Origin: Patiria pectinifera
Lineage: Eukaryota > Echinodermata > Asteroidea > Valvatida > Asterinidae
Direction of reading: 5' to 3'
NCBI GenBank assembly: GCA_029964075.1
Contig: CM057142.1
Span: forward strand, 29,762,392 to 29,826,391
Length of the DNA stretch: 64,000 nt
The notes below the pieces were generated by a model. It was given only the letters and a program-made list of their open reading frames with translations, did not search any database and had not been told where the DNA came from. Shown one piece after another: positions 583-29,139 of this stretch (its first letter is position 1; each line of letters starts with the position of its first letter). The position numbers were made by a program, and so were the translations under genes.

Positions 583-944
583 GTCTAGACAGCAGAGTTT
601 GTTCCTGGTGTCGATGGTCTCCGAGCCGCAACACTCCAGAAAACCGCTGACAACAGCTTCCCTGCCGACCGCGGCCACGTGGCCTGCGAACTCAGGCCCC
701 AGACAGCAGTGCTCCGTCATGTCATCGTAGACGTTGCTGTACCCGCAGCACTCTCCCACGCCCTTTATGACGCTCCCAGCGCAGCAGGTTTGCGCGGTGG
801 TATCTATCCACTGCTCGTCACAGCATTCTGCGTGCTCACTGATTGCATGCACTTCGCCTCCGCAACACACCTGGGTGTCATGGTTGATCCAAGTGTGGTC
901 CCCACAGCATTTGCCAGTGGTGGAGTCAAAGAGCTGTCCGTTAC
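583..944 (-). CDS. Gene A exon 3 (galaxin repeat block)
   Basis: The acceptor is tgtttttctag and the donor GTAAGT. The 362-nt exon encodes about 120 residues with eight complete Cys-Cys pairs (KCCGDHTWI, VCCGGEVHA, ECCDEQWID, TCCAGS, ECCGYS, HCCLG, ECCGSETID, LCCLD) and completes a further pair begun in exon 2. The frame ends in phase 0 after LCCLD. The next exon is not visible in 1-582, so the gene continues to the left. Confidence 0.85.
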
Positions 945-3900
945 CTAGAAAAACAGCAAACAAAACATCATTATTATTGTACATTTACAATGCACAAACC
1001 TTATTACACTAGTGTTCTTTAATCAGGCATGCAACTGGGAATTCAGACAAAAATGAGAAAACTATAAACCACACAAGACTTTGTACAATATTTTTCAATT
1101 TCTAATGGCATTCATGAGAAGTAAAAATACCGCAAGTAAAACCTGCCTGATCCCTTTACATCTTGGCAATTTGTGTATACATGTGAAGGCAGTTCAGTAA
1201 AAACAATTTTTAGTGACGGCCTCGGCAGGTACCAATTGTCAGTTGAATGGTTGAACGGGAAGTTGTTGTTTGGAAGAGACACAGGGTTCGGTGCGGCCTA
1301 GTCTTGGTGCGTTCCCCTTGCCACTGCAGCAGATGTTCAAGTCATTAGTAATACTGAGCTCAGCTCTCCAGAGACCTCGCAAATACCGGTACATGTATCC
1401 GTATTGGAAAGGATTTTTTTGACATACATGTAGGCCTTCTGTCCACAGACCACCTTTCAAGTTTGGTTGAAATTGATGACTGAACTTACGGTGAACCTAA
1501 CCAAAATGACACACACACACACACACCCACGTGTGTAAATGCCGGCAATCGTGGACGCCCCATTGTCCCTAATCCTCTTTCCTTTGTTTGTACTCTAACT
1601 TTTTAGCGACAGCTCTCATTGGTTTTGTACACGATTTGAGATCTAATCTGGCCTAATCAGTGATTCTGAGGAAAAGTTGCATGCCTGTTTAATAACCAAA
1701 TCCAACAGCCGTGCAATTTTTGCTTGATTCTCTTTCAGGATTGGGCCCAAAAAACAATAGTTCTGCTTCCGGTTTCCCTACCTACCCTATTCTGACAGCC
1801 CCTACCCAATTTTTTTTACTGGAAAAATGAGAAAAAACACCCCTAACCATCATTTTATACCTTTTACCCTTGACTACACGCAGACGCCTCCATATGATCG
1901 TACACAAAAAAAAATTGGCCAAAAAAAATAATAAAAATTCCCTACCTACATGTACCTACCCTATTTTTGAATGTCATGAAAGTTGGCCTTGGTTTTACTG
2001 GATTTCAAATAAAATTTACTCACAGCATGCCTCCTCCAGGTTTTCAGCTCTTCGCAAGATATTCCCCTGACAACATGCTTCGCCATCCCTGTAGAAGGAT
2101 TCCTTGCCATTGTATATGCAGGATGTATATCCGTCATAAGCTGGCAAGCCTGAGAAAACAATATTTAAAGTCACATTAATAATGCATCATCGTCATTACT
2201 GTTAAACAGTTCTAGGATTCAAGAAATTTGGGGTAGCATTGTATCGACATTTTATCAAACATGTCAAGGACGAAATAACATCATCACAGCTGAGCCGGAT
2301 ATACCAAAAAAATGTCATCAACGAACAGCCTGGTTAAAAACCCTGATTCTTAAAAAGAAAAACAAATATCAGATTTCTATTAAACTTAAATCAGATTTTT
2401 TTGTTATTATTTAAATCAATTTTTATGATATTTATAGTTTTGTCGTATGAGTTATCAAAAAAAGCTTAGTTTGTCATATTCAACACACTACATGTATATT
2501 ATTCAACACCATTGAATTGCATTGCGTTTTCACATTTGAAAACTACACACAATCTGTTTCTAAAAAGAGAGAAATTAACCATCTCACTATACATGTGTAG
2601 CTTCACTATATTCAAGGGAGTTATGAAATCATGGAGCACTGAACAAGAGTGAAGGACCCAATATGGAAGAGAAGTTTGTCACTTTATTTCTGATAAGATT
2701 TTTGCTGATCGTACATGTAACTCCTTTGTAATGTACATGTACTCTGTACTGACACTACATTGTACATGTACTTCTTTCAACTAGGAGTAACCATACATGC
2801 TTGAATCAACAAGTTTGCATACATGCACTCATGAGAAGTTTATAACAAACAGTGTAGCCAACCAGAGTGTGGAATGATCCACAACATAACATCAGCGTAT
2901 TAAAATTGGCTTAAAATTCTGTGCTAAAAGCTCTTTACGAGCGTATCATTCAATTGTTCAACTTCAATGTTGATACATAGGCCTACATGATCATTGTCAA
3001 TATAATATTCGATCAAATCCAGGTTTCAATAACCAACTACTAAATTATTCGAAAACAAATCACTTAAAATTTAATTGATATCCTATGACTTTTGACTTAA
3101 TTTTTATATTTTACACAATCTTTATTTGAGTGTAACTAGACTGCGAAAAGATTACTCAGTATTTTTTTGGTATGAAATCAACTAACTAGTCCCTTTTCCT
3201 GCTTGCGCAACACATACACGTATTATGCTGTAAATACCACTCCTTTGTAATATTTTTTCCCAAATTGTTGGACACAGATTGAGAAATCAAGCTTACTGCA
3301 TCTGTGACAGTAAACATTGGTTGGTTATTTGTAATTTGATTACAAATATTTTTAGTAAGTATTTGTGATTGCATGTTTTAACATTTTAATAAAAAAAATA
3401 TTTGAATATGTACAAAATACAACTGTTTGCTCTCTTTCCCATTTCATATTCCTGTGGGTGCCTATTCCTGTTGCTTTGAACCGTCTGTTTACTTAGGAAA
3501 GACATACATCTAAAACTAGAGAGCACCCATATGCATTTTAGTTCTAATTAAAATAGGAATGGGGATTGGGGTCCTGAATCACACAAGTTTTTTCTGTTAA
3601 ACTTCAAAGTTTGATTTCCCGTTTGTTTCGATGATATTTGATGAAAGCTAAAAACTTCCTGGAATGATGAGCCATTGCTTTACGCAATATCGTCCCTTTC
3701 GAGAAACCCCCTGACCCTTTTTACTAAATACTATGATTACAAAATCAAAATTCCCAAAGTTCGTCATCAGACGTCACTTCATGGATTTAATATGCATCAC
3801 TGCCATCAGCAAACACGGAAGTCGAGAAACATGTTAAGAGCGAATTGAACAATCAATCAACTTCAATTTCAATGTTCCGCGCCTACAAGCTCTAATGATA

Positions 3901-4780
3901 AATGATGGCCTCACCTACAACTTGAAAAGATGGAGATCGTCTGACCGAAAAAGATGAGTTTTCTTGCAAAGTTTACAACAAAAATGTATGATGTCGCGTA
4001 CACACAAAATCAAACAGCTTATGTAAAATGTGGTAGTTTAGGACGCCCTCTATTGTTGACAGCTTTTGTTTTCTATTTCTGAAAAATCGATGTGCCGTTT
4101 TAAGTCTCTTAATTAAACCATAGAGCTATATTAAATTACTATGGTTTAAACTGATTAGGCCTATATCCCAGATTTTTTCCGTCGTTTTCTGTCACCCCGT
4201 TTTGATTTCAATCGATTGATTAGTCAGAACTCGGTGAACACAAGAGAGTGAATATCAAAAAGCTCACGCTTTCCACGCTTGCAACTTGCTCATTGAATAT
4301 TTTGTAGGTGGAAGTTCGTGAAGTTTACGCAACAATCGGCCCATTGAAAGTAAATGGCCAATAGGGGCGAGAAAGAGAGCCCATGGAACTTTTCAGTAGT
4401 GACTGTATGATGAGTAATAGTATTTTTCCGTACTAGAGTTTCAGCCTAGTAAGAGACATCGCTCCAGACTGCAATAGCTGGCAAAAAAATATATGTGGGA
4501 TAATTTGGTTTTTGTTTTTACTGCACTTCCAGGCAATTTTCTAAGAGGTGTATAGCTAACATTCTTGTATTGTAGATATTGACAACAAATACAAGCTGAA
4601 TGAAAGAAAATACTTCCCTCCATGTTTTTAGTTATTGTTTATGATTATAGAAAATCCGAAGAGAAAAAAAAACTGAAGAAAAAAAATACCTGACGAGCAT
4701 TGTGCGAGGGAAGCTGCAAAGAGAACCAGGCAAACTGTGAACGGCAACCGGATTATTCTGCTCTGTATCCATATCGTCAT
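583..4780 (-). CDS. Gene A: galaxin-like secreted protein (5' part, runs off left edge)
   Basis: This is a spliced gene with coding exons at 4690-4780, 2024-2149 and 583-944; 193 residues lie inside the window and the reading frame is still open at the last donor. Residues 1-30 are a signal peptide with a hydrophobic core (VCLVLFAASLA). The rest is built of galaxin-type repeats: ten Cys-Cys pairs spaced about 10-20 residues, often as CCG followed by a short polar stretch. Galaxins are secreted dicysteine-repeat proteins first known from coral skeletal matrix; a squid galaxin has been linked to antimicrobial activity. The role here is inferred only as extracellular matrix or secreted defence. 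Junctions close in frame as phase 1, phase 1, then phase 0 at the last donor. Two alternative first exons lie upstream. The 3' end is beyond the window. Confidence 0.85.
945..2023. other. Gene A intron 2
   Basis: The intron is bounded by GTGAGT and TTTCTAG. It holds a CA microsatellite at about 1510-1527 and A- and T-rich stretches around 1800-1940. No further galaxin exon is seen. Confidence 0.6.
2024..2149 (-). CDS. Gene A exon 2 (galaxin-like repeat)
   Basis: The acceptor is tttctcag at 2150 and the donor is GTGAGT at 2023-2018. The 126-nt exon encodes residues 31-72, including EACCQGNIL. It ends GCATGCT, so the intron splits the second Cys codon of a Cys-Cys pair (T|GT). Gene B exon 2 ends the same way, which supports both models. 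Confidence 0.8.
2150..4689. other. Gene A intron 1
   Basis: This is AT-rich sequence with several TACATGTA words (for example 2733-2775) and TAGGCCTA-like words near 2985 and 4163. No Cys-Cys repeat exon or transposon end was recognised. Confidence 0.5.
4690..4780 (-). CDS. Gene A first exon, variant 1 (signal peptide)
   Basis: ATG at 4780-4778 opens 30 codons plus one base and stops at a GTATTT donor (phase 1). The peptide starts MTIWIQSRIIRLPFTV and has a long hydrophobic core ending in ASLAQCSS, a good signal peptide. The last G joins GC of exon 2 to give Gly. It is the first exon nearest to exon 2, and a TATATAAG box lies about 155 bp upstream. Confidence 0.75.
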
Positions 4781-4935
4781 TTCGAAGTTTAAAGAATTTC
4801 CTAGCAACTGATCTGAGTTTCATGCATGCAGTGTACATGTACGTGTGTAGTTTCGGTATTGGAGCAATTTAAAACCATCGATCTTACTATCCAAAAGATG
4901 AGGGTTCTGATTTCGCTAGGCTCCATGCAGCTCAG

Positions 4936-4943
4936 CTTATATA
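4936..4943 (-). promoter_or_regulatory. TATA box of gene A first exon 1
   Basis: TATATAAG is read on the minus strand, 155-165 bp upstream of the ATG at 4780. A start site about 30 bp downstream would leave a 5' leader of roughly 130 nt. This is inference from position and motif. Confidence 0.5.
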
Positions 4944-5753
4944 ATACCGATGCATTACACAGGCCTATGAGCGTTATTTTTAGAAGTGACGAAAATTCTG
5001 CACCTAAGATAGAACTCACCTGGCCGCGTTGTATTTCCTGCTACTGTGTTGCAATGCATTGTTATTATAATTTTAAAAATTTCCCAGGCCCACGATGAAA
5101 TGATGTTGTGACCTTAAATGAAATTATGACATAATTATTTTTAGGTTTAGGGTTCATTAATTTATCGCGCAAAGAGGCTATGTTCCTCAACCGTTTATTA
5201 ATAGGTTCCGGATAACAAACGCACAATCTGCCTGCCTGATTCACAGAATTCAGTGAAACTTCAGCAAACAGTAAACGGGTGCAGCATGTTTCTTCTGCGG
5301 TCAAGCATTATTATTTTTTAAGAAACCGCAAAATTAACTCAGTGAAATTCGCGGTTAGGCTGAACGTATATATCGGTGGTCACGGGCACACGATCATGTT
5401 GGTTGACAATAAAATTACCGGACCGTACGCGTGTCCTCCAAGATGTGTGACGTGTGTACAAAATTAATGTACGTACGGTAGGCAAAAATGGAGGTGACGT
5501 CGTTTGAGAAGCAAAATGATGCTCTAGTAACAAGGGCCTGCGGGCCCGCTCTGCTGCGCTCTTGTCACCCTTATACCGGTACTTTTTTAACAGCAAACTA
5601 GTTTCTTCACGCACGAAGATATAAACTCGTTTTGTATCGAGCTTTCCGTTTCCAAAATTACAAGGGAAAAATGAAAGAAATCACGGTGAACTTGACTCAT
5701 GGACGGTACATCTTTAATCCATCAGTCTTAGTTTTCACCGAACTATTTCTTAC

Positions 5754-5847
5754 CTTGCGAAGTTACTGAGGTCAATGCCAGCGCCGCCGAAACGGCCAAT
5801 GATATGTAACTGATCCACACGCAAAGTGCGTACGTCGCCATCCTCAT
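5754..5847 (-). CDS. Gene A alternative first exon 2 (signal peptide)
   Basis: ATG at 5847-5845 (a second in-frame ATG follows two codons later) opens 31 codons plus one G before a GTAAGAAA donor. The peptide has a hydrophobic core (YISLAVSAALALTS) typical of a signal peptide. Phase 1 matches the acceptor of gene A exon 2 at 2149, the first galaxin exon downstream. It is a diverged copy of 12120-12213: 8 of 31 residues differ, with no stop and the donor kept. It could be an alternative promoter-exon of gene A or a duplicated relic; the retained frame favours use. Confidence 0.6.
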
Positions 5848-6047
5848 AACAGGAGCTCCAGATTTCTTAAAGATCGTAATGACTTTTAATCCTTTAATCG
5901 TTTGAGACTTAGGCAGAGTAAATCAAATATCCAGAACTTAATATTTCACAGCCAATTTTTCAGAAGAATATATCGCACTAGGAGACACCAGTCGTGACTA
6001 TCCCATACAGACGTTCTTTAATGAATAATGTCTTTACTCGCTAGAAC

Positions 6048-6061
6048 CCATATTTATGGCA
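6048..6061 (-). promoter_or_regulatory. TATA-like box of alternative first exon 2
   Basis: The minus strand reads GCCATAAATATGGG about 205 bp upstream of the ATG at 5847. The same motif at the same relative place is kept in the second duplication copy (12411-12424), although the surrounding sequence has diverged. Confidence 0.45.
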
Positions 6062-6452
6062 ATCTGAAATGAGGTAAATGTATAAAAATATAAACTGCAT
6101 ATTAGCACAGTGTGTATAATTAGCGGGAGTCGTTGTGTAGCGTTATTGCGATTCTGAGCGAATTTTGTTTCTTTTTCGGCCGGACGTTGCATAATCACCT
6201 TTCGTGCACACAGCTACAGAGAAATACCTGTGCGGCACATGCAGACGGAACAGTGTCTGGGGAATACCCAGCACTCTCTACAATCGCGGACCGGGCGGGT
6301 TGGTTATCATAACAGTTTTGCAATAGCCTTGCTCTCAGACCGGGCTCCATTGCAATATACGAAATCAATAGGTCTTTTTAAAAACTATTTAGAGTAGCAT
6401 CGAGATGATATTATTGTTAAAAAAAACACTCGGTTTATATAAACGTGCGATA

Positions 6453-7080
6453 ACTGTACGTAGTGAACTAGGTTGGAGAACTGAAAGAAGAGAATACCAT
6501 GGTTTTTAAGTGTTTATCAGGCAACGTTCCTAGTTATCTTAGCGAAGTTTTTGTTCCAGTCATTGTGCTACACTGTCATCGAACTAGGAATAGCACTGTT
6601 GGAAATGTGGCTGTTCCACTCCCTAGAACAGAAAATGGAAGAAGAACTTTTAACTTAAGGGATGCCCAGGCTTGGAATAACTTACCGCAACATTTAAAAT
6701 CTCCGCATCCAGCAAGCCTTACTCACTTCGTCAATCAACTCAAACGTACAACTCAGTTAAAAGAAGAAAATAAGCGGGAGAAAAAGAAGAAAAAAAGAAA
6801 AGAACAAAAAAACAGGGGTGGGGGGGGGGAGGGGGGAATGTCATCTTGCAGTGATGTTTTGTGTTGTATTGTAAATGTCTGTATCATCTGTGTAATTCCT
6901 ATTTTATTTAAGTTTATTAAAATGGATTTTTTAAAAACATTTTTACATTGTACTCTAAATATTTTAATAGTATTTTAATAGTAGTTTTGTGTGAGCTGGG
7001 ATCCATGGGAGATCAGTGAGGTTTTTTTACTGAATGGATCACACCGGAAAAATAAGAAATAAATGAATAAATAAATGAAT
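6453..7080 (+). mobile_element. LINE 3' end (non-LTR retrotransposon tail)
   Basis: The open frame at 6499-6770 encodes the far C-terminus of a LINE reverse-transcriptase protein: TFNLRDAQAWNNLPQHLK is the familiar 'W-N-x-L-P' tail of CR1/L2-type ORF2, followed by a 3' UTR and an (AATAAATG)n-like tail at about 7050-7080. The duplication copy at 12.8 kb lacks it, so it inserted after the duplication. It is 5'-truncated and not functional. The exact clade is uncertain. Confidence 0.7.
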
Positions 7081-9570
7081 AGCTTTTGTTTGTTTTATTT
7101 TTATTGCTAACTCAAAAGCAAGATTTCCGCGTGTTTAGTTATTGATAAATATTATTTTATTGCAACAATTCCAGAAGAAAAATGGGGAATCGCGAGAACG
7201 GGGCCTAACCTCCGAACTAATAGACGCAGGTGAGAACGTATTCTAATTACGTAATGCACTGTTTATTGCAACATGATCCAATCTTTGTGTGGATGGTGGT
7301 TTTGGGTGAAAATTTACGGTAAAGGAGCAATGGGAAGTATTATTAGAATCTAAGAACATTGTAAGCGAGAGACTTCTTCACTGTACAGTTGGACGAGAAA
7401 ATTAATGATCTTTGAGGTAAAAGCTATTAAGGGGAAGCTGCAAAGAAGGTCCCCGAATGACCTACATGTGTGGTTGTGGCACAGAGCCACAAACCATGGA
7501 GAACCTTAATATTTGAGACGCCCCTAATATAGTTCTATATTAAGTCATATATTAATTTCTATTATTCATCACATTCAAAGTAATTTGGGTTGGGTTATTT
7601 TATATATTTATGAACTTGCTGGGAATGTTAAAGCCACGCCTCCCGATTGGGCCCTCCCAATCCTTCCGGGATCCCGAGGGAACTAAACACTCTATTAAAG
7701 AAAAAACGAAAAATTTGGGGAAAAAAGAGACCCTGAAACAAAAGCCGTCTTCTGTGTTGAATGTTGAATCTAAAACGGGGGAAAAGAGGCGTCTGCATTC
7801 AAGTTTACGAAAACTATAGCCTGCCGCATAACTATCCGAGTTTACCGGTTCACGGCATGATTCAAGATGGCAGCGCCCCCCCCCCCCAAACAGACGCTAA
7901 ATGGACGAGTTTTCTTCAAAACTCTTCCTCATCCTCCTGACGAAATTCGGCCTGAAGGTTCTGGACAGCCCCCAGTCTTCCTCATCTCTGCAAACAATTT
8001 TTGGTCCATATCCGACGATCAAAAATAACGCGAGGCTCGTCGGCGATGCAATCTCCGTAACTGAACAAGTAAACTTTGTTGTTGAACAAAAAAAAAAGCA
8101 GTTGTCGCAAATTGACGGCTGTCATTTCGTCGCCGTGTGTGCCTGATCATCGTGTGACCGATAGAACGAAATCGGGCGCGTGTGTCGGTAACGTTGCGGT
8201 CGAATGCGGTGTAACCGCGCAACGGTGATAAAAAAAAACATGTACCGGCGGACATCCGCATCATCTGGTGCACCGTATAAAATCAGAAAAGTGTGCAGCG
8301 GGCTATAGCTTCTGGTTTTTCCATCCTATTCATGAGTATCCAGGTTCAAACCGTGTGGCAAACCTCAAGTCCTCAAGTTGATGTTGTATGGCGGAATATA
8401 GTGTGCGAGAAAATGGTTTATATTAGAAAACTAATACGAAGTTCGAGCCTGAAGCAAAAACAAGACATGAAGCAGATATTTTTGTAAACCCAAAAGTTAG
8501 ACGGGTATAGGACCAGCTTTTGAACCAAATAAGGTGACATCAGAGCAGGGGGGCACAGCCCCCTGCTCATACGTCTTTTTTTTGGGGGGGGGAGTAAAAC
8601 CGACGGAACTTTTTTCATTATTAAACCCATTGAGTGCGTCATCTAGAAAATGCCCCCCCCCAAAAAAAAAATGAACCTCAGCAATGCTAAAAATTAATTG
8701 AAATCACCTATTGGGTTTCATCCAGCCTTATTTCACTCGAACGGGAGGCTAAGACAACATGAATACTTTCAGTTTTAAAAACATATCGTCATTCCAAAAA
8801 GGGGGCATCAATGAAAGGCCCGCGCAGCGTGGAAGGAAAATAAAGACTACCGTGTGGGCAGAGGCAAAAGTCAAGTTGACGTCATGATATTTGTTTGTTT
8901 CAGTTAAAACATATCGAATGTCGGATTCATTTCTGTGTGTTTAGAGTTGGACATTCTGTCATCCGCACAGTCCGAATCCACTAACTAGAAAGTTTGAACA
9001 GTAATGGTGTTTCACTTCACTGTTTCGAAAGTAATGTTGACAAATGCGATCGGCTTCGTAAGTGATACTGATATAGTCGATTGATATACGGAAATAAAGC
9101 GCAACGTTGTTTTCATGTTTAGGCCTGTTATGTTTTGCGGTCCGTCGTGCCAAAACGGGGAAGTAAGGAAAAACACGAAGAGCAAACATTGAAACTGTAT
9201 TGGGCAATGGAGTATACAGCTCTTTCAACTCAATTAGAATCCCCACAATCATGCCCTAAAAATAGTACATATTGACATACGGTTTAAAAAAAGCCTAAAA
9301 ACCAACACAAGAATACCTGGCATACAAAAATACAAGAAACTGACAAAACAGCACTAGCTGGAACAAAGGTGTCAAAGAAGTTCAAGACTTATTGTTCGAA
9401 CCAATTCTAAACCAGTTAATAGTTTAATGCACATGGGGATCGTAAGCAGGAAACTCGCGACCCGGAAATAATCACCTCAATAATGGCAGATGCCTGCATT
9501 TCATCAAGTTGAAAGGACCGGGTACTTCACATGATGATTATCACATGATGATTATATATAAATGTAGCAG

Positions 9571-9835
9571 GGGCGTAGCGAGGGGGAGGGGGTACGTGCG
9601 CCCCAATGGGAAAAGCCAGAACAACAACAAAAAGGAAGAAAAGGACAAAGAAAGGGGGAATGCACATTGAACAACATGGGCGTCCGCAGGGGTGTCAATT
9701 GGGGTGGGGTGGCAAATGTCCCCCGCCCACCCTCGAACAAAAAATGATCAATTGAGATTATGCCGGAGAAAGTACAAGGATTTTGGGAATAAGTGTGCTT
9801 CGCCCCCTCTAGAGAAACCCTGGCAGCGCCCATGA
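9571..9835. mobile_element. Possible hAT-like MITE remnant
   Basis: The left end reads CAGGGGCGTAGCGAGG, the kind of terminal repeat seen on small hAT elements, and a second CAGGGGTG-like end occurs inside at about 9689. The right end is unclear (near ggcagcgcccatg) and no clean target-site duplication was found. Confidence 0.3.
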
Positions 9836-11038
9836 ATGAGATGTAGGCCTATATGGTAAATTAATGATCTTTGCAAATGGGTATAATTTTATCTTGCACA
9901 CTCGTGTTTAAGTACCGTTCGCCTACTTATCCACTCGACTGTATCTAATTGGTTAATTTCTTCCTGTGCAAGACCAGTTATTAAGGAACCCTTGCATTCT
10001 GTGAAGCAAGATTTTCGGTTGACACTTAACATTTTCTCAACTTTTTTTTTAACGCTTTGACGGGGATTCAAGCCCCCTCCCCACCTCATCCGCTCTGCTT
10101 CGAGTAGCTGCACACCATCCCACGCATGATATTTGATTTTGTAGAGTTCTCAGTATAATTATCGGCAATTCATTCACGCATACATTAATGAATAGCTGAA
10201 ACATTATTTCAATGATGAACACACTTCTTGACTAAAGACGCGAGGCCAGACGGTGATACGCTGATAGGCGCAGGAGCGTTAGCCCTCCCCCCTCCAACCG
10301 GTAAACATTTTGGCGGTGGCAAAGTTTCTCGACTGTTTCTGTACTCAAGAACAATTTCCCCTTCGATATTTATAATAATTATGTCCTTGAACAACAACGT
10401 TCTATTTTCCCTAAATTCCGAAGAAACAAATAAATCTCTTTAAGTTTTCAAAACAATGCAATTTTGGGGGTTTTTTACTCCTCAAACCACTACCAAAAAT
10501 CTACAGTTGCACCTGAATATTGGTTTCCTAATCCCCCGACCCGCTTCTTAACTTGTAGTTGAAGACCTCATTAATGATAATCTCAAAACATGGAATAGTT
10601 TTTAATGAATTTTTTTATTGAAGGATGTTTCGGATATATACGAAATGATACTGAAATGCCCGTAGAGAGATTGTCAGATGATATTTTGGACTGCTACCCA
10701 CACACATTGATGAATACTTTCGATGTAAACTTTCACTATTAATGCTGAGTCATTTTTGGACCGTGAAACAAAACAATTAAGATTGAAACAATAGGACATG
10801 CAAACGATTCCACTTCCTTTATTGCTGTAATAACGATGACCACGTCACATTGATCGAAAACAGTTCATCCGGTTTCATGTTCCACTTCAATATTACCTGA
10901 TCTATTTGAATCTCAGTTTAAGTTACATGACATGTTATATTCTAATTAAGCACAGGCGCATCATGGGGGGGGGGGGGGTTTCGCAAATTGCAACTTTTCC
11001 CCAATGAAACCCTGCCCTTTTTTTAGTGTTCATCCCTC

Positions 11039-11320
11039 CAAGGGCGGGTCCAGAACACATTTTTTTCTGGGGGAAACTTTGGTCCCCAAAAGTGGGTACA
11101 AAAAATGACGGCGTGGGGTTTGGGGCCCGCTTGAGGGCTCCGATTTGTTTTAATTCTAGGTGCCCTGTGGTGCGATCTGGGGCAATTTCTGACCACTTTA
11201 TCCACTTTTTTTTGAGGAAGAGATGGTGGTGTACGCTACGCAGTGCCTGCCTTTATTGCGACGTCACTTAAAAAAATATTGGGTTCGTGGGTTTTGGGGG
11301 GGGGGGTGGTGGGGCAAATC
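11039..11320. mobile_element. Truncated hAT MITE (same family as 37011-37329)
   Basis: It starts CAAGGGCGGGTCCAGAACAC and runs co-linearly with the intact copy at 37011-37329, including the shared words gacggcgtggggtt and gatggtggtgtac. The right inverted repeat is missing. The sister duplication copy near 20838 lacks it, so it arrived after the duplication. Confidence 0.6.
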
Positions 11321-12009
11321 TCCACATGCCACCAATGCCATTTACTCTGTCTTCACAATTTCAGAATTATTTTATTGTTGGCCTGTTTTTATTAGTTTTA
11401 AAAACCACAACGTGAAATGGAATCTTTTTTTTTAGTTCTCGAACACAAACCTGATCCGATCCTGATCCACACCTAAAATGCAACATAATTATACAAGCAG
11501 TTGTTTTCAGGTTTCTATGTCGTTACAACATTTTAACATGGGCTTGCCGTTGTAAGAAACATTGTAGATTATGTACGAGTGTGTAAAGAGCCTAAAAGCA
11601 CGTCATTTGGTCCTTGAGCTTCCGGACCGCTCCGTAACCCTTCTGTTACAAGGGGTTGCCCTTTCTCTTGCCGTATAATTTTTTTGACAGAATGATTTCT
11701 GACCGTGATCACCTCAAGAAACATTCATGTTGGAATGTTTACCCGGTATCCTGGCATTTCACAAGAAAATAATGATGAGAAATCAGTTGGAGATGGGTAA
11801 AAACGAGTTTTACATATAGGACCTTTCACATCGGGATGTTCGTGCCTAATAGCGTTAGTTTTCACAATGCGTACTTGGCTACTTGCGTGAGAACGGAAAT
11901 GATAACGACGCGAACATTTACCTAATCTACTTCCCATGGATTCTAGATTTAGCTCCTAATCTGAATTATTTTCAGGTTTCAAATACATACACTAATACGA
12001 AATTATGCA
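11321..12009. other. Spacer between duplication copies
   Basis: No exon or element end was recognised. The sequence is ordinary AT-rich DNA. Confidence 0.4.
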
Positions 12010-12119
12010 TTGTATTACAAAAACATGGAGGATTTGTTCGTAGTAAACAACCGATTTAAAAAAGGGTAAAACTCATGGACAGTTGAACTAGTCGTAGTAT
12101 TCATGGAACAATTTCTTAC

Positions 12120-12213
12120 CTTGCGAAGGTACCGAGGTCAATGCCAGCACCGCCGAAGCGACCAGTGTTATGTAACCGATCCACACGCAACGTGCGTACA
12201 TCGCCATCCTCAT
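12120..12213 (-). CDS. Gene A alternative first exon 3 (signal peptide)
   Basis: ATG at 12213-12211 opens 31 codons plus G before a GTAAGAAA donor, as in the copy at 5754-5847. The hydrophobic core (YITLVASAVLALTS) is kept although eight residues differ. The phase fits gene A exon 2 at 2149, which would mean an intron of about 10 kb. No galaxin exon lies between. It may be an alternative first exon or a non-functional duplicate. Confidence 0.5.
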
Positions 12214-12410
12214 AACAGGAGCTCCAGACTTCTTAAAGATCGTAATGACTTTTATTCCTTAAATCGTTTAAGACTTAGAAAGAGTAAATCAAATATCCAG
12301 AATTTGATATTACACAGCCAATTCTCAGAAGAATATATCGCACTGGGAGACACCAGTCGTGACTATCTCATACAGACGTTGTTTAATGAATAATGCCTTC
12401 ACTCGCTGGA

Positions 12411-12424
12411 ACCCATATTTATGG
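12411..12424 (-). promoter_or_regulatory. TATA-like box of alternative first exon 3
   Basis: The minus strand reads GCCATAAATATGGG about 200 bp upstream of the ATG at 12213. The motif and spacing are the same as in duplication copy 1. Confidence 0.45.
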
Positions 12425-12707
12425 CAATTTGAAATGAGGTAAATATGTAAAAATAAAATAGTGTATAATTAGCTGAGTATATGTACAACAAACGGAAGTT
12501 GTTGAGAAGCTATTGCTTTCCCTGTGTTATTGCGACTCTGTACAAATTTTGTTTCTTTTTCGACCGGACGTTGCATAAGAGCACCGTTTATGCATGCTCC
12601 ACATACGAGGCAACGGGTACCGTTTATACACGTGTACACAGCGAAATACCTGCGCACAGTCGTGACAGTGCGCAGACTTTGGACGGAACATTGGCCTCGT
12701 GGGTTTC

Positions 12708-12718
12708 GGGGAATCCCC
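12708..12718. promoter_or_regulatory. kappaB-type motif upstream of first exon 3
   Basis: GGGGAATCCCC fits the Rel/NF-kappaB consensus GGGRNWYYCC and lies about 290 bp upstream of the TATA-like box. The corresponding site in copy 1 (6259-6269, GGGGAATACCC) has lost the consensus by one base. Function is inferred. Confidence 0.35.
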
Positions 12719-14100
12719 GGGACCAGGCATATAGACCGTGCGGGTTATAACTAACAGTTGTGCAATAACCTCACTATTAGGCCGGGCTCTATTGCAGTTT
12801 GCGAAATCAATCGGTTTTTAGTATTTTGACGAGTTAGTGGAGCATCGAGATGATGTTAAAAATAAACTCAGTGTATATAAACGTGTACAGCTGGTTTTTG
12901 TTATATTTCTATTGCTAACTTTAAAAAACGATTTCCTCGAGTTTAGTTATTGAATTTTTTTTTTATTGCAACAAATCCAGAAGAAAAATGAGGAATCGCG
13001 AGAACGGGGACAAACCCTTTGAACTACCGGACACAGGTGAGAACATCACTTCAATACGTAATACGACGTTTATTGCAACATGATCCAATCTTTACTAATG
13101 AAAAGTGTGGATGGTGGTTTTGGGTGAAAAAAATAACCCTATAAGAATAATGGGAAATAATATTACAATACATGTATCGGAAATATTTTAGTGCGAGATA
13201 CTCCCTTCATTATTTGACAATGTGAAAATTAATGGTCTTATGTAGGAAAAGGTATGCGAAGCTGCGTGGGATACTCACTGAAGATCGTTACCTTCCTTTT
13301 GGCCGTCCACCCGTTAGGTTTGGGGTACAGCTATGGCAGTAGCGGATCGGGGGTGGGGGGTGTTTTTGCAACTTACGACTAATGTTATGGTGCTAGTTAA
13401 AAGGGGCCAATAAATTGGATGCTAAAGTTCTTAAATTTATTATCAAACGGTCTCAATGCAGGAGAACTGAATACGGTGACAGGAGCAGTGGCGGGGTAGG
13501 GGGAGGGGGACACAGTCCCCGCTCGAGGGCGGTGACTACTCTTGTGCCCACCCCCCCCCCAGCCCCCGCCCAGAATTTATTTTTTGAAGGGGGAGCGAAA
13601 ACGAGCTGTATTGTTCAACCCGATTGGGTGTCCATCCAGAAAATTTCCCCCGTGCAAATTGCATCTTACGTATATATTTCAGCATCAATGACGTTGAGGG
13701 GGTAACAATCTTATTTTTAAAAAAATGATGTCAAAAATAGTCAACATTGATGCAACTTCAATCGACACCATTTGTATTTGCACCTTAGTGTTTTTATGTT
13801 ATTTCACTTTTGAATTGAGTGCGTTAGTAAAAACAAAACATCAAAAAATGAATATATTTTGTTGACGCAATGCGAAAATACACTAGAGATACACGTTTTT
13901 CGAGTTACAAACGCAGGGTGATCAGGCAAACAATTATTTCATTGGACATTGCCCAGTTAAGTTGTGAATATTTTTATTTCAGAACAGAAAAAAATGAACC
14001 ACGAAATGCAGCCTTTTGCAGTGAAACTGGTTGTTTTAATTTGAAAAAAAAATTGCCTCCATTGATTCGATAAATTTCAGTATACATTGTATTTACACGT

Positions 14101-15110
14101 ACACCTTACTTCCGGTTTGATGACGTCATCATTTAAAAATGTGCAAACTGAAATTGATGTAGTTCAGAGAGGATACATATTCAACATGAATTTAAAAGAA
14201 GAACGTCTGAAAATATAAAATGTACAATGAATGTATAGTGTGTGTACTGATTACACAAAACTTCCGGTTTGATAACGAATGGTTATCACCCTTTCGGTGA
14301 TAACGTCATGCATTCCTTTTTTGTGTTTGGCATCCCTCACTAAACATTTCCATAAACTTTTTTTATCGTAGTGAAATTCATCCGTTTTCAAGTTATATTC
14401 GATTCTCATTGCACTTCTGGTAACACCGGACGCAAAGGTCAAAGGGCTTTAAGCTCAGGGATCCAACACATTGACCAATGTCTAACTGATCACCAAAAAT
14501 GAGAGCAGTTCTAAATTTATGTGAAAATTTATAGTTCAAAGTAATCTTTCAGATTTTGATCTTAAAATTTGATACCTGGTGACGTCATGATGACGACACA
14601 CAATTGTTCACATCTTCGGACCAGGGTTCAGGTTCATACCAGGTTTTATCATAATCCCGTAAAAACGTCAGGAAGAAATTTTGGTTTGCTTTGATATAAG
14701 GCTCATGTCTATATTTTGAATTCACCTAACTTTGATCTTCCGGTAGCCCCGGAAAAAAAGGGCAAGCGACTTCACGTTGAGGACAAAAATGTTATCAATA
14801 ATGATCTATGTGATTACAAAGTACAAACATCAGTGATTATTTTGTTCAAGAGTTATAAGTAAAGAAGCTGATCAATTTTTCTAAAATCGCTCGTAATTTG
14901 ATATATGATGGCGTTATCATGACGTCCGAGTAATATGCACACCTTTGGATCAGTGATGATGATGTTAGTTCAAAGTTCCAAGTTTATATAACCGTTGAGA
15001 AAAAAAAACCGCGAAGAATAATTATTTTCCGGAGAAAAAAAATAGAAAGAAAAAAAGAGGGAAAGAAGGGGAGAATATTAATTCTTCCCATTTTAAAATG
15101 GTCATTGGGT
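14101..15110. other. Copy 2-specific stretch with CRE-like palindromes
   Basis: This block has no counterpart in copy 1. It contains TGATGACGTCATCA at 14118-14131, TGACGTCA at 14580-14587, an imperfect gttatcacc...ggtgataac hairpin near 14281-14305, and repeated cttccggtttga words (14108, 14261). No gene was found. Confidence 0.4.
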
Positions 15111-15438
15111 CATCCCTGACCACCCAATAAAGAGTTATATCCCATCTGCTTTTATCCGAACGGTAAGCTAAGACAAACATGTACACTTTCACTCTGTAAT
15201 ATAATTCGTCATTCTAAAAAGGGGATGTCAAAGCAAGGCCCCTGTGGCAGGAAAGTGTAGACAGTATAACTTCCGGACAGAAGTAGAATATTTTTTTATG
15301 CTGTTCACGTCATGTGAACAGTTTGTTTCAATTTAAGCATATCGGTTGTCAGTTTCATTTCTGTATTAGAGTGGAAACTCCGTCCGCTGCTGACTAGAAA
15401 GTTTAAACCTGCGCAAGTGTTTCGCTCCACTGTTTTAA

Positions 15439-15954
15439 AGGGAAAATACAACATTTGCAAACATAAAAAAATAAAACTACCTAATCATTTTGAAATACCT
15501 TACTGGACTGTTAGTGAATGACAGTGTAAAGCATCCTGTAAAATCATGGCACCTGGTATACTGTCATTTTCAAGAAAAGTGGTATTTTTGTATCAATTTC
15601 CAACGCTGGTCGGCCGACCAGCGTTGGAAAAAACTTTTTTTCTTCTTCAAATACTGGCCCCAATTGACCATCGCACTTGTTTGCAATCGATTACACACCT
15701 ATGAACGGGTACAAGCCAGCTAGACTGGTTCCCTGACCCTACAATTCCCCAATATATATAAACTGTTCTGTTTCTTTTTAAATGGAGTCAGGGAACCAGA
15801 CTACAGGAAAACGATTGTATTTCTTGGTTTTTATAGCATTTTCGAACCCAAAACCTCAAAAAAGTCAGTGTAACTATATTTGCTATATATTTCCAACCCC
15901 CCAATTCCATCCATTTCTGAAAATTACAGCAAAAGCAAATGATGTATATTCCCT
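15439..15954. mobile_element. TTAA-flanked MITE (piggyBac-like), copy 1
   Basis: The element starts AGGGAAAATAC and ends TATTCCCT, and is flanked by TTAA at 15435-15438 and 15955-15958. Duplication copy 1 (about 9022-9040) shows the empty site. Inside are a 34-bp perfect palindrome (15597-15630, core GGTCGGCCGACC) and an inverted pair agactggttccc/gggaaccagact. Assignment to the piggyBac group rests on the TTAA target only. Confidence 0.65.
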
Positions 15955-16132
15955 TTAAAAGTAATGTGATGCAACTGGTTTCGTACAAGTGACACCCTAG
16001 TTGACCGATCAGCAGAGGATGTACGTATTCCATTAATAAAACATAGCGACATTAATGTTAGGACTTGCAGCGTGTCAAGGACTAGACTTGACTAGCAAGT
16101 GTGCTATTCTCTAGCCCTTTTATCCCGTTGTA

Positions 16133-16597
16133 CAGGGTGGTGCAAAAAGAAGGAAATCCACTGTTGACAGAAATTTTAACCTACTTACTTAACTTATCTG
16201 AACTGGTTGTTTTTTTTACATAATGTAGTGAAGTATAGCGCTTCAACCATACGTGGTGAAAAAAATGCAAGAATATTGTTATTATGCTAATTTGAATACA
16301 AGTCACCAAAGTCATTGTTGTCCACGTGTAAGTATAGTGTTTTTTTGTCTTCAAGTCAAGCTCCGGAGCTCAGTCAAGAGGATTGAATAAAGCCGTCCGT
16401 GGACAAACAGATTTGGCACATGACATTTTAAACTGCCATATCTCAGAGACAAAATAGTATGCATTTGCAATCATTTTTTTCGCCATTATGTTTAAAGATC
16501 AGTATTTGAATACCATAAATTGAATTTTTGAAATGTGCTCAACACAGAGGTGAAAATTGCTGTCAAAAGTGGGCTTCCTTCTTTTTGCACTACCCTG
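16133..16597. mobile_element. Tc1/mariner-type MITE, family M1
   Basis: The terminal inverted repeats are CAGGGTGGTGCAAAAAGAAG at the left and its near complement at the right, with TA duplicated at 16131-16132 and 16598-16599. It is 465 bp long and has no coding capacity. Related copies lie at 34745-35612 and 59801-60252. Confidence 0.75.
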
Positions 16598-16726
16598 TAG
16601 ATCTGTTGTTAATTTTCGATGAGTTTTAACGTGGATGCTATTTCTTTACATCTGTCAAATGGTTAATTAACCAAACCAAACCAAACCAAACTTGATTAAG
16701 TTTATTTAACAGCCCGTCGTGACAAA

Positions 16727-17013
16727 CAGGGGGAAATAAAAAACAATTTTTGAATGAACAATTCACATGCATCCCCATGAGAATTGTTTCCTTTTACTGA
16801 AAGAACACTTACTTTTTTGTGATCCGTGGACAGAACTTTAAAACGGTGTTTGTGTTCAAAATTCCGTAACTTGAAAAGTGATTTGAATGATTCATATACT
16901 AAATGAAAGCTTAATGACTGGGCTTTGATATCCTAAATTTTGAAAGTGCTACAGGAAAAACTTCATTCAAAGTCGGTCCTGCCATTTTGGTTTGGTATTT
17001 TTTTACTCACCCT
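16727..17013. mobile_element. MITE fragment, family M2
   Basis: The right end tttactcaccctgta and the internal words gatccgtggacagaac and aaattccgtaacttgaaaag match the M2 copies at 34844-35345 and 57438-57936. The left end is degraded, so the start is approximate. Confidence 0.5.
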
Positions 17014-17189
17014 GTATTGAGCAAGGGGGGTACCACTCTTTAATCGAAATGCATTAATCCCAAAATGTATTAAATATATATAGTACATATCGACATACGG
17101 TTAAAAAAAAACATTAAAAAGCAATAAAACAAAAATGTCGCCGAACACGTAGTGAATACAAGGCATAAAAAAGATAACATGAAAGACAC

Positions 17190-18740
17190 TGTCGTAAAGC
17201 AAAGGTGATCAAGGAAGTTCAAGAAAAATTGTGGAACCAATTCTCAGGCAGTGTAACAGCCTCGTGAATACATCGTAAACAGGAAACTTAATTGCGACAA
17301 TGCCTTTTCTGTTTTCTTTATGGACACTGCCTTTTGTCAAACAGTTTTAAAAGGGACCTCACCTGGGGATTAGATATTTGTTAAATGGTCTTACACCTTC
17401 CTACTCATCTGCTGGACAATAGGGTCAGTAAAAAAAGGGAATAAAACATTAAAAAACACTAGCACCGAAACAAAGGTTTCAAGGAAGTTCAAGAAATATT
17501 ATGGAACCAATTCTAAACCAGTGTAACAGTCTCGTGTATATTGCTAGATTAATGGAAAATGCCTTTTGTCAAGAAGTTTGAAAGGGACCTAGCTCACATG
17601 GTGATTAGATATTTGTTTTGGCAAGTGATCTTTTATTGGCGAATGGGTATTTTATCTTAAACCTTCTACTTATCCACTGGACTACAGGGTAATAAAAAGA
17701 GGAGAATGAAACATAAAAGACACTAGCATCGAACAAAGGTTTCAAGGAAGTTCAAGAAATATTAGGGAACCAATTCTAAACCAGTGTAACAGTCTCGTGT
17801 GTATTGCTATATTAAAGGGAATGTATATACATCATTGGCTTTTGCTGTAATTTTCAGAAATTAACTATTTGTGGGGTTAGTTTTATAGATCAAATATTGT
17901 TACACTGACATGTTTGAAGTTTTGTGTTCGAAAATGCTGGAAAAACCATGAAAAACAAAAATGTTCAGGTAGTCTGGTTCCCCGACTCCACTAAAGATGA
18001 AATGGATTTTTAAAAAATGCGGGAAAATTGTAAGGTAAGGGAACCAGTCTAGCTGGCCTGCACCCGTTCATGACCCGTGGAACCAATAGCAAACACAATT
18101 TGGACTGGGAAAAAATGGTAAACTTGGAGCAGTAGTTGAAAAATAGTTAGGTTTTTCCAATGGTGGTCGGCCGACCACCATTAGAAATGTATTCAAAAGT
18201 ACAATTTTTCTTGAAAATGACTTCACACCAGGTGCCCTAATTTTACATGATGCTTTAGACTGTCATTTACCAACATCCTAGTAAGGCATTTCGTAACAAC
18301 TTGGTAGTTTTATTTTTCGATGTTTGCAAATGTTGCATTTTCCCTTTAATTGAAAATGCCTTTTGTCAAGAAGTTTCAAAGGGACCTAGCTCACATGGCG
18401 ATTAGATATTTGTTTTGGTAAATGATCTTTGGCAAATGGGTATTTTATCTTAAACCTCCTACTTATCCACAGAACTACAGGGTAATAAAAAGAGGAGAAT
18501 GAAACACAAAAGACACTATAAGCACCGAAACAAAGGTATCAAGGAAGAAATATTATGGAATCAATAATTCTAAACCGGTGTAACAGTCTCGTGTGCATTG
18601 CTACATTAATGAAAAATGCCTTTTGTCAAGAAGTTTCAAAGGGGCCTAGCTCACATGGTGGTTAGATATTTGTTTTGGCAGGTGATCTTTGGCGAATGGG
18701 TATTTTATCTTACACTTCTTACTCAGTATAAAAAAACAGT
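17190..18740. repeat. Tandem array, ~265-bp unit, four units
   Basis: The unit start marked by caaaggt..caaggaa recurs at about 17200, 17471, 17733 and 18531; the third unit is interrupted by a 530-bp TTAA MITE. Shared words include gtgtaacagtctcgtgt, aaatgccttttgtcaa, agctcacatgg and ctacttatccac. Duplication copy 1 has only a single unit (about 9340-9900), so the array expanded after the duplication. Confidence 0.7.
17816..18345. mobile_element. TTAA-flanked MITE (piggyBac-like), copy 2, inverted
   Basis: This has the same ends as 15439-15954 in opposite orientation, flanked by TTAA at 17812-17815 and 18346-18349. Neighbouring array units give the uninterrupted sequence (gctagattaatggaaaatgcc at about 17541), which defines the insertion precisely. 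The internal palindrome is at 18156-18184. Confidence 0.75.
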
Positions 18741-21700
18741 GACCTAATGAAAAAAAAGCAAAATATGTGGCTCGCCCAATTTAATCAAAATAACATAGGG
18801 ATTAAGTACAAATCATTGACTAGTAGGCCCTAACTGAGAATTTTTTTCACGTAATGTGCGTACTGCGTTCACAAGTTGTGTTCATTTTTTTTTATACAAA
18901 CATCGCAAAATTAGCTGTCCACCAATGATCCGCACTTACCGTTCAAATACGATGAAACAAGGGCAGTTTCCTGACTTCATGAATGAACGGAGATTTGCAC
19001 ACACACACACACACAATTGACACAAATCACCATCATTGTTTCAGAAAAAAATCCTCGAATTCAGACACGAAATCTGACGGTTAAGCTCGCTCACAAACAT
19101 CTCGGAAGCTGTGGGCCAACGAATTCCTGTTCATGCATGAGTCACGTGATGTGCCATGTAATTTCTGGAAGGAGTAGTGTTTCGAGTACAACAAGATCAG
19201 ATTTTTGACCCCAGTGACCCCATGATGACCTTTGACCCTAGTTTGGCTATGTGCCATGTTGGGGCTGTTCTACTGATACTTTTGACAAAGTTTTGTTTAG
19301 TGAAACGGTCAAAATATGTTGGAGCAATAGACAATGTCAACGTTTGTTACTAACAAACGGATTAAACGGAGAGACATGATGATTTGTTGAGCTACTATAT
19401 CCCGCAGCTGAAAATACTCTGTCAGTCTTGACAAAAATTATAACAATCTCATTGTATCGGAATGCCTGATGTGTGTATAGATCCCTTGTTCTCACACAGC
19501 TCAATGGCTTCAAATTGCATTCCGTGGACAGCTGTTTACTGGAGCATTTCAGTAAAATATATCTTCTCGTAGTATGGATCAATTTCAGTAATACCTTTTT
19601 TTTTTAAGAGCAAAAGAACATGCTCGTTTAATACAATTGTATGCTTCGTTGGTGTGTCAAATTCAGTTGATTTTTAAGGTGGAAAAATCTTTAATCCAAG
19701 ACACTTTCTTTTTGACTCATTCTGTATACTTTTATATCTAATTGAATAATTTCTTCCTGTATGGGCAGGACCAGCAGCTCTTGCATTCTGTGGGGCAAGA
19801 ATTACTGTTTACACTTGAAATGCTCTGATTCTTTTAGGTTTTGACGAGGATCAAGTACTTGTCAAGGCCCACTCGCTCCCTCCCCACCCCATCCGCGTCT
19901 TCTTTGAGTGCGCACACCGTCCCATCCATGAAATTTAAAGGGTTCATGAGCTGAGATGAATTTTCTGAGAAACAAATTTTTGTGCAACTTTCTACTCATC
20001 TTAAATGTATGAAAACTATTTGACATCCCTTTTCGGTTAATTTATTGAGAAGTGCACTTCTTTAAACTTTAAAAAAAAATGTATCTGTTTTTCCGGACAA
20101 CTGAGGTCGCTGTTGCTGTGATGTCATTCCAGGAAGATACTGTTCAGTTTAGGGCTTTTCTGTTCAAAATGTGAACCCAAAATTTGCTCATTGACAACAT
20201 TGGCACACTGCCTTGTACTTACACAACAACGTACGAATCGCCAAAGAAAAGAAACTTCTTGACAGCAAAATATCCAAAATTCGAGCAACTGTTTGTTTCG
20301 GAGATACATCACTGGCAGCTTTCAGAAATAAATGGATTTAGATGAAACGGACGCAATTTATAGACTTTGGGGAATGGTAAGTTCAGAGAATCAGTTTCTT
20401 GAAAATGTCAGCACAGCATTGCAAATGTTGTATCTTCCCTTTAAACGCCCGTAGAAAGGTTGTCAGTAGATATTTTCAACTGCATCCCATGTACACTGTT
20501 TTATACTTTCGATTTAAACTTTCGCTATTAATGCTGAGTCATTTTTGGGTGGTAAAACAAAACAATGTACGATTTAATTGAGATACAAACATTTCCTTTT
20601 CCTTTATTGCTGTAATAACGATGACCATATCACATAAATCGAAAACGGTTGATCCGGTTGCACATTTTCCATTTCAATATCACATGTTGGGCGTTGTTAT
20701 GATCTATTTCTATCTCAGTTTTACGATATGTTACTATAATTAAGCATTAGCGTGTCTCTTTTTTGTGGGGGAGGGGGTGGGAAGGGGGGGGGGACAGGGA
20801 CAACTTTTCCCAGCTGAAACTTCGCCCTTTTTAGAGTTCACTCCTTCAAGAACTCAACCGGTAGGCCTACAAGTATACCAGCTCCACGCTCTGACCCCTC
20901 CTCCTTGAACATCGCTTTATAATGACCAAAACCTTCTACAAGTGTCAGAAAAAATTGTCTGCCCTACCCCTATAACTAGGCCTGTACACCACTTATAGGA
21001 TCATTTGCTTTTCATGCAATTTGCTCGTTTCCAATAAAAACACCACTCAACCTTGATCCAAACTTTGGAAGAATGATCAAAACCGAACCTGTTGAAATTT
21101 CAGTAGATAACACTTTTCGAGAAAACAGTGACAGCCTTTTCGTCAACAGAACTCTTCATTAAAAAAAAACCCCGTCATTGATCGTTGGAAATAACCTACA
21201 TTTCTTGATTTCTTCGTATTAGCAAGCCAGACGGAATAATTTCTTGGGGACTCGGAGTTAAATAGTATAGTACGATATTTAATCCAACAGGCCTTTTGAT
21301 AATGATTCGGTAGTGCATGGGTATGGTGTGCATTGACTGCACGAAGGTCATGTCAATTCGACAGTTCGCTCGCGCAATGTGCAAACTCTTATGAACAATG
21401 GATAAACCAAACACGTCACGCGGTCCTTGACAAGTATATTGATAACAAGCTATTAGCATTCACCTGTACCTCAGCTGGGTTTTTTCCATACATATTGACA
21501 TCACACAGGTATGACATGACGTAGTGCGGTAACACACGTTGCGACATCAAATGGGAATAGCAGGGATTTCCCCACTTCGATGATGAAAGCTAGCTGCAGT
21601 TGTTATGAATGGATGACTCACACCGTGTGGAATGCCATTCATGGTGTCCTGAATAGTAGCGGGGTCAGGTAATACATGTACGTCATTATCGATTAAAGGG

Positions 21701-23481: not shown

Positions 23482-23914
23482 CTAACATTGTGTCACTGCT
23501 GAATCAACAACAGCACTACCACAGCATATAGAGTTTGCTCCGTAGAGTTTTGGCACGATATTGCCGTCGCAACACATCCGAGTCTGGGCGTCCGATATGT
23601 ACGCGTCTCGGCAACACTCCCCATTTTCCGTAGCGGCGTGCATCGTTCCACTACAATTAACGTGCATTGTGCCGCGGGCGTCACGCAAACTGTGGCAGTT
23701 CCGGTTCCCATTGGCGCTCAGTATGTATGACGCACTGTGTGATGCCGTATGGAAACAACACAACTGGTTGCTAGGGTGAAAGAGTTGGTTGCCACAGCAA
23801 CGGGAGCCGCTGGTATCCCTGTGCAGGCTACCATCGCAGCATCTTTGCTGGGAATCTGTTGGGTCGTAGGTCAGCGCGCCGCAGCACAGAGTGTGTGGCG
23901 TCTCTTTGGGATAT
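23482..23914 (-). CDS. Gene B exon 12 (terminal)
   Basis: The acceptor is atctcatttcag. It encodes residues 706-849 with seven pairs (LCCGALTYD, RCCDGS, RCCGNQLFHP, LCCFH, ECCRDAYI, MCCDGN, ICCGSAVVD) and an NCSG sequon, ending DSAVTQC before TAG at 23484-23482. Confidence 0.9.

Positions 23915-29106: not shown

Positions 29107-29139
<33 letters not shown>

What the first reader, a model, noticed from the sequence alone, without database searches (positions are those of the whole stretch)
4690..12424. Array of three TATA-driven signal-peptide first exons for one galaxin gene
Seen: three exons (4690-4780, 5754-5847, 12120-12213) each open with ATG, encode a hydrophobic signal peptide, end in a phase-1 donor with a final G, and have a TATA-like box 155-210 bp upstream; no galaxin exon intervenes before exon 2 at 2149. 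The two outer ones are duplicates that differ at 8 of 31 residues yet keep frame and donor. Inference: gene A has alternative promoters that swap the secretion signal and 5' leader while keeping the mature protein.
Basis: partly seen in the sequence, partly recalled or inferred. Interest (0 to 1): 0.72.

Follow-up and report, generated by a model that had tools for sequence, protein, structure and literature searches.

The report
Duplicated promoter and signal-peptide first exon
An animal gene for a cysteine-rich secreted protein (a galaxin) seems to have had its start, meaning the control region and the exon for the secretion signal, copied in tandem, so it may have two interchangeable starting points; this is a known way for genes to gain alternative promoters and is not yet shown here with RNA.

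Summary
The three exons exist as described: ATG, hydrophobic leader, phase-1 donor; the outer two differ at 8 of 31 residues. The TATA claim holds only for 4690; the outer two have CATAAATA, and loose TATA-like matches occur in half of random 240-bp windows. Of three upstream segments searched in the 613-Mb genome, two were found twice, at collinear places. Exon plus leader are 91% identical with one gap; other alignable parts are about 83% with many gaps, and most no longer aligns. This fits two alternative first exons, as in Arabis PEP1 and mammalian IgLON genes, but gene conversion is not excluded and no RNA was seen. The middle exon (4690) is unrelated, with a weak donor and five upstream ATGs, and is doubtful. 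Verdict: interpretation partly supported; new member of a known kind; moderate-to-low interest.

The parts
12120..12213 (-). signal-peptide first exon, distal copy; phase-1 donor CAAG|GTAAGA
12214..12447 (-). leader/proximal promoter block of the distal copy, 215/234 identical to the other copy with 1 gap; CATAAATA at about -210; one 2-codon upstream ORF within 202 bp
5754..5847 (-). signal-peptide first exon, proximal copy; phase-1 donor CAAG|GTAAGA
5848..6082 (-). leader/proximal promoter block of the proximal copy; one 2-codon upstream ORF within 203 bp
4690..4780 (-). unrelated candidate signal-peptide first exon; weak donor CAG|GTATTT, five upstream ATGs between TATA box and start codon
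4937..4943 (-). TATATAA box 163 bp upstream of the 4780 ATG
5724..11042 (.). duplication unit 1 (minimum extent), left breakpoint about 30 bp inside intron 1
12090..20850 (.). duplication unit 2 (minimum extent), contains other repeats
10654..10899 (.). distal segment of unit 1 retained in unit 2, no open frame kept through both copies; candidate enhancer (inferred)
20443..20686 (.). distal segment of unit 2, partner of 10654-10899
2024..2149 (-). gene A exon 2, first di-cysteine exon; acceptor scored, donor (GCT|GTGAGT) read by eye
583..944 (-). gene A exon 3 (predicted), Galaxin_repeat; further di-cysteine open frames continue left of the window to a stop codon
6448..7047 (.). about 600-bp insertion in unit 1 only, between proximal block and upstream remainder

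Best explanation
Gene A is a galaxin-repeat gene on the minus strand whose exon 2 (2149) has no start codon, so it needs a signal-peptide exon upstream. Its original first exon, leader, promoter and several kilobases of upstream DNA were duplicated head to tail, with a breakpoint about 30 bp inside intron 1. Two promoter + leader + signal-peptide exon modules now stand in series at 12.2 kb and 5.8 kb. Each would start its own transcript and splice from its strong phase-1 donor to the same acceptor at 2149; in transcripts from the distal promoter the proximal exon would be removed as part of intron 1. Shown: the duplication, the intact frames and donors, the matching phase, and the better retention of the promoter-exon blocks. 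Inferred: that both promoters are active, that both splice to 2149, and that they differ in where or when they are used. The 4690 exon is at best a minor third start.
For: Collinear chain between the units. Of three upstream segments searched in the whole genome, two (10640-10960 and 9930-10140) were found twice, here and at the collinear place. The search with 12000-12500 found the two copies only. Exon + leader identity 299/328 with 1 gap, against 882/1061 with 45 gaps in the other alignable segments (Fisher p 2.6e-4 for substitutions; 6.6e-4 for gaps, using 2 gaps in 316 from a second alignment). Only 22% of unit 1 beyond 7349 still chains. Under background rates both copies keep start, frame and donor in 1.2% of simulations. 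Strong identical donors. One 2-codon upstream ORF in each leader. No other galaxin exon was seen in the units, and none of the 10 open frames scanned hits Pfam, so a shared partner should lie downstream of 5754. Gene A has open di-cysteine frames from 2149 to a stop codon, two in the window and eight in L007; their splicing was not modelled in full.
Against: No transcript or 5'-end data. Coding changes look neutral: 8 nonsynonymous to 2 synonymous, and 8 or more residue changes arise in 23% of random draws of 10 substitutions. The leader is more alike than the coding part, which gene conversion would also give. With the block's own rates, keeping frame and donor is unremarkable (25%; 42% without indels), and with background substitutions but no indels it is 17%. 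Block limits were chosen after seeing the alignment. A strong signal-peptide exon of the same quality turned up in other DNA once (1 of 6). Segment 8730-9030 found only itself in the genome search, though blastn aligns it at 68%.
Confidence: 0.5

Rival explanations
1. Only one of the two duplicated first exons is active. The other is a relic whose promoter-exon block stayed similar through gene conversion or by chance.
For: Coding substitutions look neutral; the leader is at least as conserved as the coding part, as conversion would give; keeping frame and donor is not surprising at the block's own rates; unit 1 carries a 600-bp insertion.
Against: Identical strong donors, no gap in the exon, one gap in 328 bp against 45 in 1061 elsewhere; a second, distal segment is retained too.
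Confidence: 0.3
2. The 4690 exon is the main or only coding first exon of gene A; the outer exons are relics or rare starts.
For: Closest to exon 2, a strict TATA box at -163, good hydrophobic core of 2.8.
Against: Weak donor (1.6) and five upstream ATGs between TATA box and start codon, two of them in one frame that stays open past the main ATG; not distinguishable from the chance rate of 0.54 such exons per 10.3 kb.
Confidence: 0.12
3. The outer exons serve another transcript: a small secreted protein, or an unrelated plus-strand or noncoding product of the conserved block.
For: A 107-aa plus-strand open frame overlaps the block (12070-12393), and 14 of 19 leader differences fall in one register, its third codon position (post hoc P 4e-4).
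Against: The copy-1 version of that frame has stops and a frameshift. None of the 10 open frames scanned (of 77 listed) hits Pfam. No second exon of a recognised kind was copied with exon 1.
Confidence: 0.08

Closest known systems
PEP1 (FLC orthologue) of Arabis alpina, partial tandem duplication (PMC7927791, a review; two passages seen)
   Same: A tandem duplication covers first exon, part of the promoter and part of intron 1, leaving two first exons in series ahead of one gene body.
   Different: There, two overlapping transcripts with different starts are reported. It is about 2 kb and a plant flowering regulator; here the units are at least 5.3 and 8.8 kb, diverged, and the exon codes for a signal peptide. 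Transcripts untested.
IgLON genes (Lsamp, Ntm, Opcml) twin promoters 1a/1b (PMC5288359, passages seen)
   Same: Alternative first exons each encoding a signal peptide are joined to a common body, so secretion signal and leader change and the mature protein hardly does.
   Different: IgLON use is supported there by ESTs and expression assays. Here the two main first exons are duplicates that still align, and use is unproven.
Galaxins of stony corals (PMC4890752, galaxin passages seen; Pfam PF24748)
   Same: Secreted proteins with tandem di-cysteine repeats; the gene A and gene B sequences scanned score above the Pfam cut-off.
   Different: Gene A has ten di-cysteine open frames, the last of 391 residues; role and organism unknown here.

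Membership tests
Partial tandem duplication giving alternative first exons (PEP1 type) | duplication includes first exon, promoter region and part of intron 1 | tested here: met
   similarity ends about 30 bp past the donor
Partial tandem duplication giving alternative first exons (PEP1 type) | two transcripts with separate starts joined to the common body | not testable with these tools
   no RNA data held
Twin-promoter signal-peptide exons (IgLON type) | each first exon ends in a phase compatible with the common exon | tested here: met
Twin-promoter signal-peptide exons (IgLON type) | each first exon encodes a signal peptide | tested here: inconclusive
   hydrophobic cores of 2.4-2.8 by a home-made score; no signal-peptide predictor was available
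Twin-promoter signal-peptide exons (IgLON type) | processed proteins have identical N-termini | tested here: inconclusive
   by eye, 4-8 exon-1 residues probably remain after cleavage (recalled -3/-1 rule)
Twin-promoter signal-peptide exons (IgLON type) | promoters used differently between tissues | not testable with these tools
   no expression data
Galaxin | di-cysteine galaxin repeats over the Pfam PF24748 cut-off | tested here: met
TATA-driven promoter array | TATA box at each of the three first exons above chance | tested here: not met
   strict TATA only at 4690; loose match in 51.8% of random windows

The most novel reading that the evidence does not exclude
Gene A carries a small promoter array: two duplicated modules, each with its own retained distal element, promoter, leader and signal peptide, plus an unrelated TATA promoter at 4.9 kb. 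Together these give the same cysteine-rich protein three secretion signals and slightly different mature N-termini (one with an extra cysteine), used in different tissues or stages.
Probability: 0.12. Interest if true: 0.5.

Novelty: new member of a known kind. Interest (0 to 1): 0.3.

Why it matters
It is a readable case of how a gene may gain an alternative promoter: duplication of the 5' end only, followed by decay of much of the copied DNA while the promoter-leader-exon block and a few distal segments stay recognisable. The well-preserved parts point to candidate regulatory elements that can be tested. The outcome, alternative signal-peptide first exons, is already known from other genes.

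Tried and rejected
Three independent TATA-driven promoters: rejected, because two of the three TATA claims are at chance level and the outer two are one duplicated element.

Duplicated exon from a dispersed repeat: rejected; the searches with the exon block and with two of three upstream segments each found two places only, and the third one. That tool scores only its best candidates and skips very common words, so diverged copies could be missed.

4690 as a diverged third copy: rejected; no DNA match to the outer block at E 1e-6 in the window self-comparison, and the genome search with 4600-5050 found only itself. A 36-bp match of that region elsewhere in the window (80.6%, E 0.002) was not followed.

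Homology of the outer block to the 5' ends of gene B or of the paralogue at C14:25.63 Mb: none for gene B, only 19-bp matches at E 0.06 for the paralogue. Their first exons could not be fixed; 40872-40935 (donor 8.0) is a candidate for gene B, and none is convincing for the 25.63-Mb gene.

Alternative second exons inside the units: 10 open frames (of 77 stop-to-stop frames of 50 aa or more listed, both strands) scanned against Pfam, none hit.

Naming the organism: COX1 and GFP families found no match in the genome; the GFP search has no working positive control. A search for '613.5 Mb' found one unrelated plant paper. Not resolved.

Literature: 'galaxin' with 'alternative first exon' gave 0 papers; 'galaxin', 'signal peptide', 'exon' gave 5, of which I saw galaxin passages of one. 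Searches listed 15 and 10 papers, none with the galaxin term. Searches for alternative first exons with signal peptides or tandem duplication gave 25 papers, 15 listed, and 5; from these I saw passages of two. I claim no absence from print beyond these searches.

Failed scripts: searches (file name; variable clash), redone.
Full report
What was checked. The three minus-strand exons are real open stretches with the stated coordinates, starts and phase-1 donors. Exon 2 at 2149 begins in the matching phase, and its open frame holds no ATG before the acceptor. Di-cysteine open frames of gene A continue left of the window (eight in L007) to a stop codon; I did not model all their splice sites, and a simple scoring failed to find some. 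Exons 2 and 3 joined, and one gene B open frame, score above the Galaxin_repeat cut-off of Pfam. A genome-wide search gives 27 exon-level matches: 9 in gene A, 8 in gene B, 8 in a paralogue at C14:25.63 Mb, 1 at C14:32.82 Mb and 1 on C6; the last sits in a simple tandem repeat and is probably false.

How much is chance. A simple scan asked for an ATG, 15-60 codons, a hydrophobic core and a phase-1 GT. It found 19 hits in 360,000 strand-bases from 18 random 10-kb loci, or 0.54 per 10.3 kb of one strand, and 6 in 120,000 strand-bases of six other loci. Two independent finds in the region therefore have P about 0.10. The scan is crude, and some background hits may be real exons. At the donor strength and core of the outer pair (donor >=6.5, core >=2.4, set after seeing them) the 18 loci give 0 of 19 and the six loci 1 of 6 (L011:2986-3079, which also has a strict TATA). 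The TATA claim is weak: loose matches occur in 51.8% and strict ones in 10.6% of 6984 random 240-bp windows; of the three exons only 4690 has a strict box.

What the outer pair is. Self-comparison shows that 5724-6194 and 12090-12578 are only the start of a collinear chain. It continues at 7048-7349/12858-13169, 8738-9025/15157-15435, 9942-10134/19735-19936, 10654-10952/20443-20746 and 10991-11042/20801-20850. Of three upstream segments searched in the whole genome, two (9930-10140 and 10640-10960) were found twice, here and at the collinear place; the third (8730-9030) found only itself at that tool's sensitivity. So the outer exons are the 3' ends of two tandem copies of gene A's 5' region, with similarity ending about 30 bp past the donor. 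Unit 1 holds an insertion of about 600 bp (6448-7047), and unit 2 holds other repeats (17.1-18.7 kb).

Retention. In the exon the copies agree at 84 of 94 positions with no gap, and in the 234-bp leader at 215 of 234 with one gap. On the intron side the last 30 bp agree at 25 of 30. Farther upstream (12448-12900) there are 281 identities in 324 aligned bases and 24 gap events. Over the other alignable segments identity is 882 of 1061 with 45 gaps, and only 22% of unit 1 beyond 7349 still chains, so the background is biased upward. The contrast is significant (p 2.6e-4; 6.6e-4 for gaps), but the block limits were set after seeing the alignment. Against selection on the peptide: 8 of 10 exon differences change the residue, which is what random substitutions give (mean 6.5 changes, 8 or more in 23%). 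Keeping start, frame and donor in both copies has probability 1.2% at background rates, 17% with background substitutions and no indels, and 25% at the block's own rates. Either both blocks are constrained as promoter, leader and a fast-evolving signal peptide, or gene conversion has kept them alike. I cannot separate the two here.

Why gene A is the likely target. No open frame with two or more CC that resembles a galaxin lies between the outer exons and 2149, none of ten scanned open frames of the region hits Pfam, and the only recognised exon shared by the two units is exon 1 itself. A partner common to both should therefore lie downstream of 5754. The first coding exon of a known family there is 2149, and it fits in phase. 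This is inference; no junction was seen.

The middle exon. 4690 is not part of the duplication, and the genome search with its region found only itself. It has a strict TATA box but a weak donor (1.6 against 6.7), and five upstream ATGs lie between the TATA box and its start codon; two of them, in one frame, stay open past the start codon. The outer leaders have one two-codon upstream ORF each within about 200 bp. It may be a minor start or a chance exon.

Mechanism. Two promoters in series, each with its own leader and secretion signal, would be spliced to one gene body; the distal transcript would remove the proximal exon with intron 1. Mature proteins would be nearly but not exactly the same, because a few residues of exon 1 probably remain after cleavage (inferred).

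Comparison. Structure: partial tandem duplication of promoter, first exon and part of intron 1 is known from Arabis alpina PEP1, where both first exons are used (PMC7927791, passages). Outcome: alternative signal-peptide first exons with separate promoters are known from IgLON genes (PMC5288359, passages). If both exons are used, the case is a new member of a known kind, in a galaxin gene.

Unexplained. Of 19 leader differences, 14 fall in one register mod 3 (P 4e-4, found post hoc). This is the third codon position of a 107-aa plus-strand frame in unit 2, but unit 1 has stops and a frameshift there.

Noticed in passing
12214-12447 and 12070-12393 (+): 14 of 19 differences between the two leaders fall in one register mod 3 (post hoc P 4e-4), matching the third codon position of a plus-strand 107-aa frame that is open in unit 2 but broken in unit 1.
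   Followed up: partly
12874-13036 (+) and 6436-7230 (+): Divergent side of the duplicated block: TATATAAA on the plus strand, then a short ATG frame (12988-13036) ending at a donor-like CACAG|GTGAGA (read by eye). The unit-1 version has an early stop and a 600-bp insertion behind the TATA.
   Followed up: partly
10654-10899 and 20443-20686: Retained distal segment found at two places in the genome search. Both copies contain TGCTGAGTCA (AP-1/MARE-like, motif recalled) and a 29-base identical run TTCCTTTATTGCTGTAATAACGATGACCA.
   Followed up: partly
23485-36600 (-): Gene B, a tandem galaxin paralogue of gene A with similar exons. Candidate signal-peptide exon 40872-40935 (donor 8.0) and another at 39321-39411 with TATATAAA 22 bp before its ATG.
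   Followed up: partly
L005, L010-L012 (C14:25.630-25.643 Mb, +): A third galaxin gene 4.1 Mb away with similar exons; its first exon was not found.
   Followed up: partly
17176-18723: Group of diverged repeats inside duplication unit 2.
   Followed up: no
6472-6978 (+): 168-aa open frame inside the unit-1 insertion. It looks like the C-terminal part of a LINE reverse transcriptase (recalled resemblance); no Pfam hit at E 0.01.
   Followed up: partly
L009:197-1933 (+): ABC transporter frame (ABC_membrane, E 8e-8) just right of the window.
   Followed up: no
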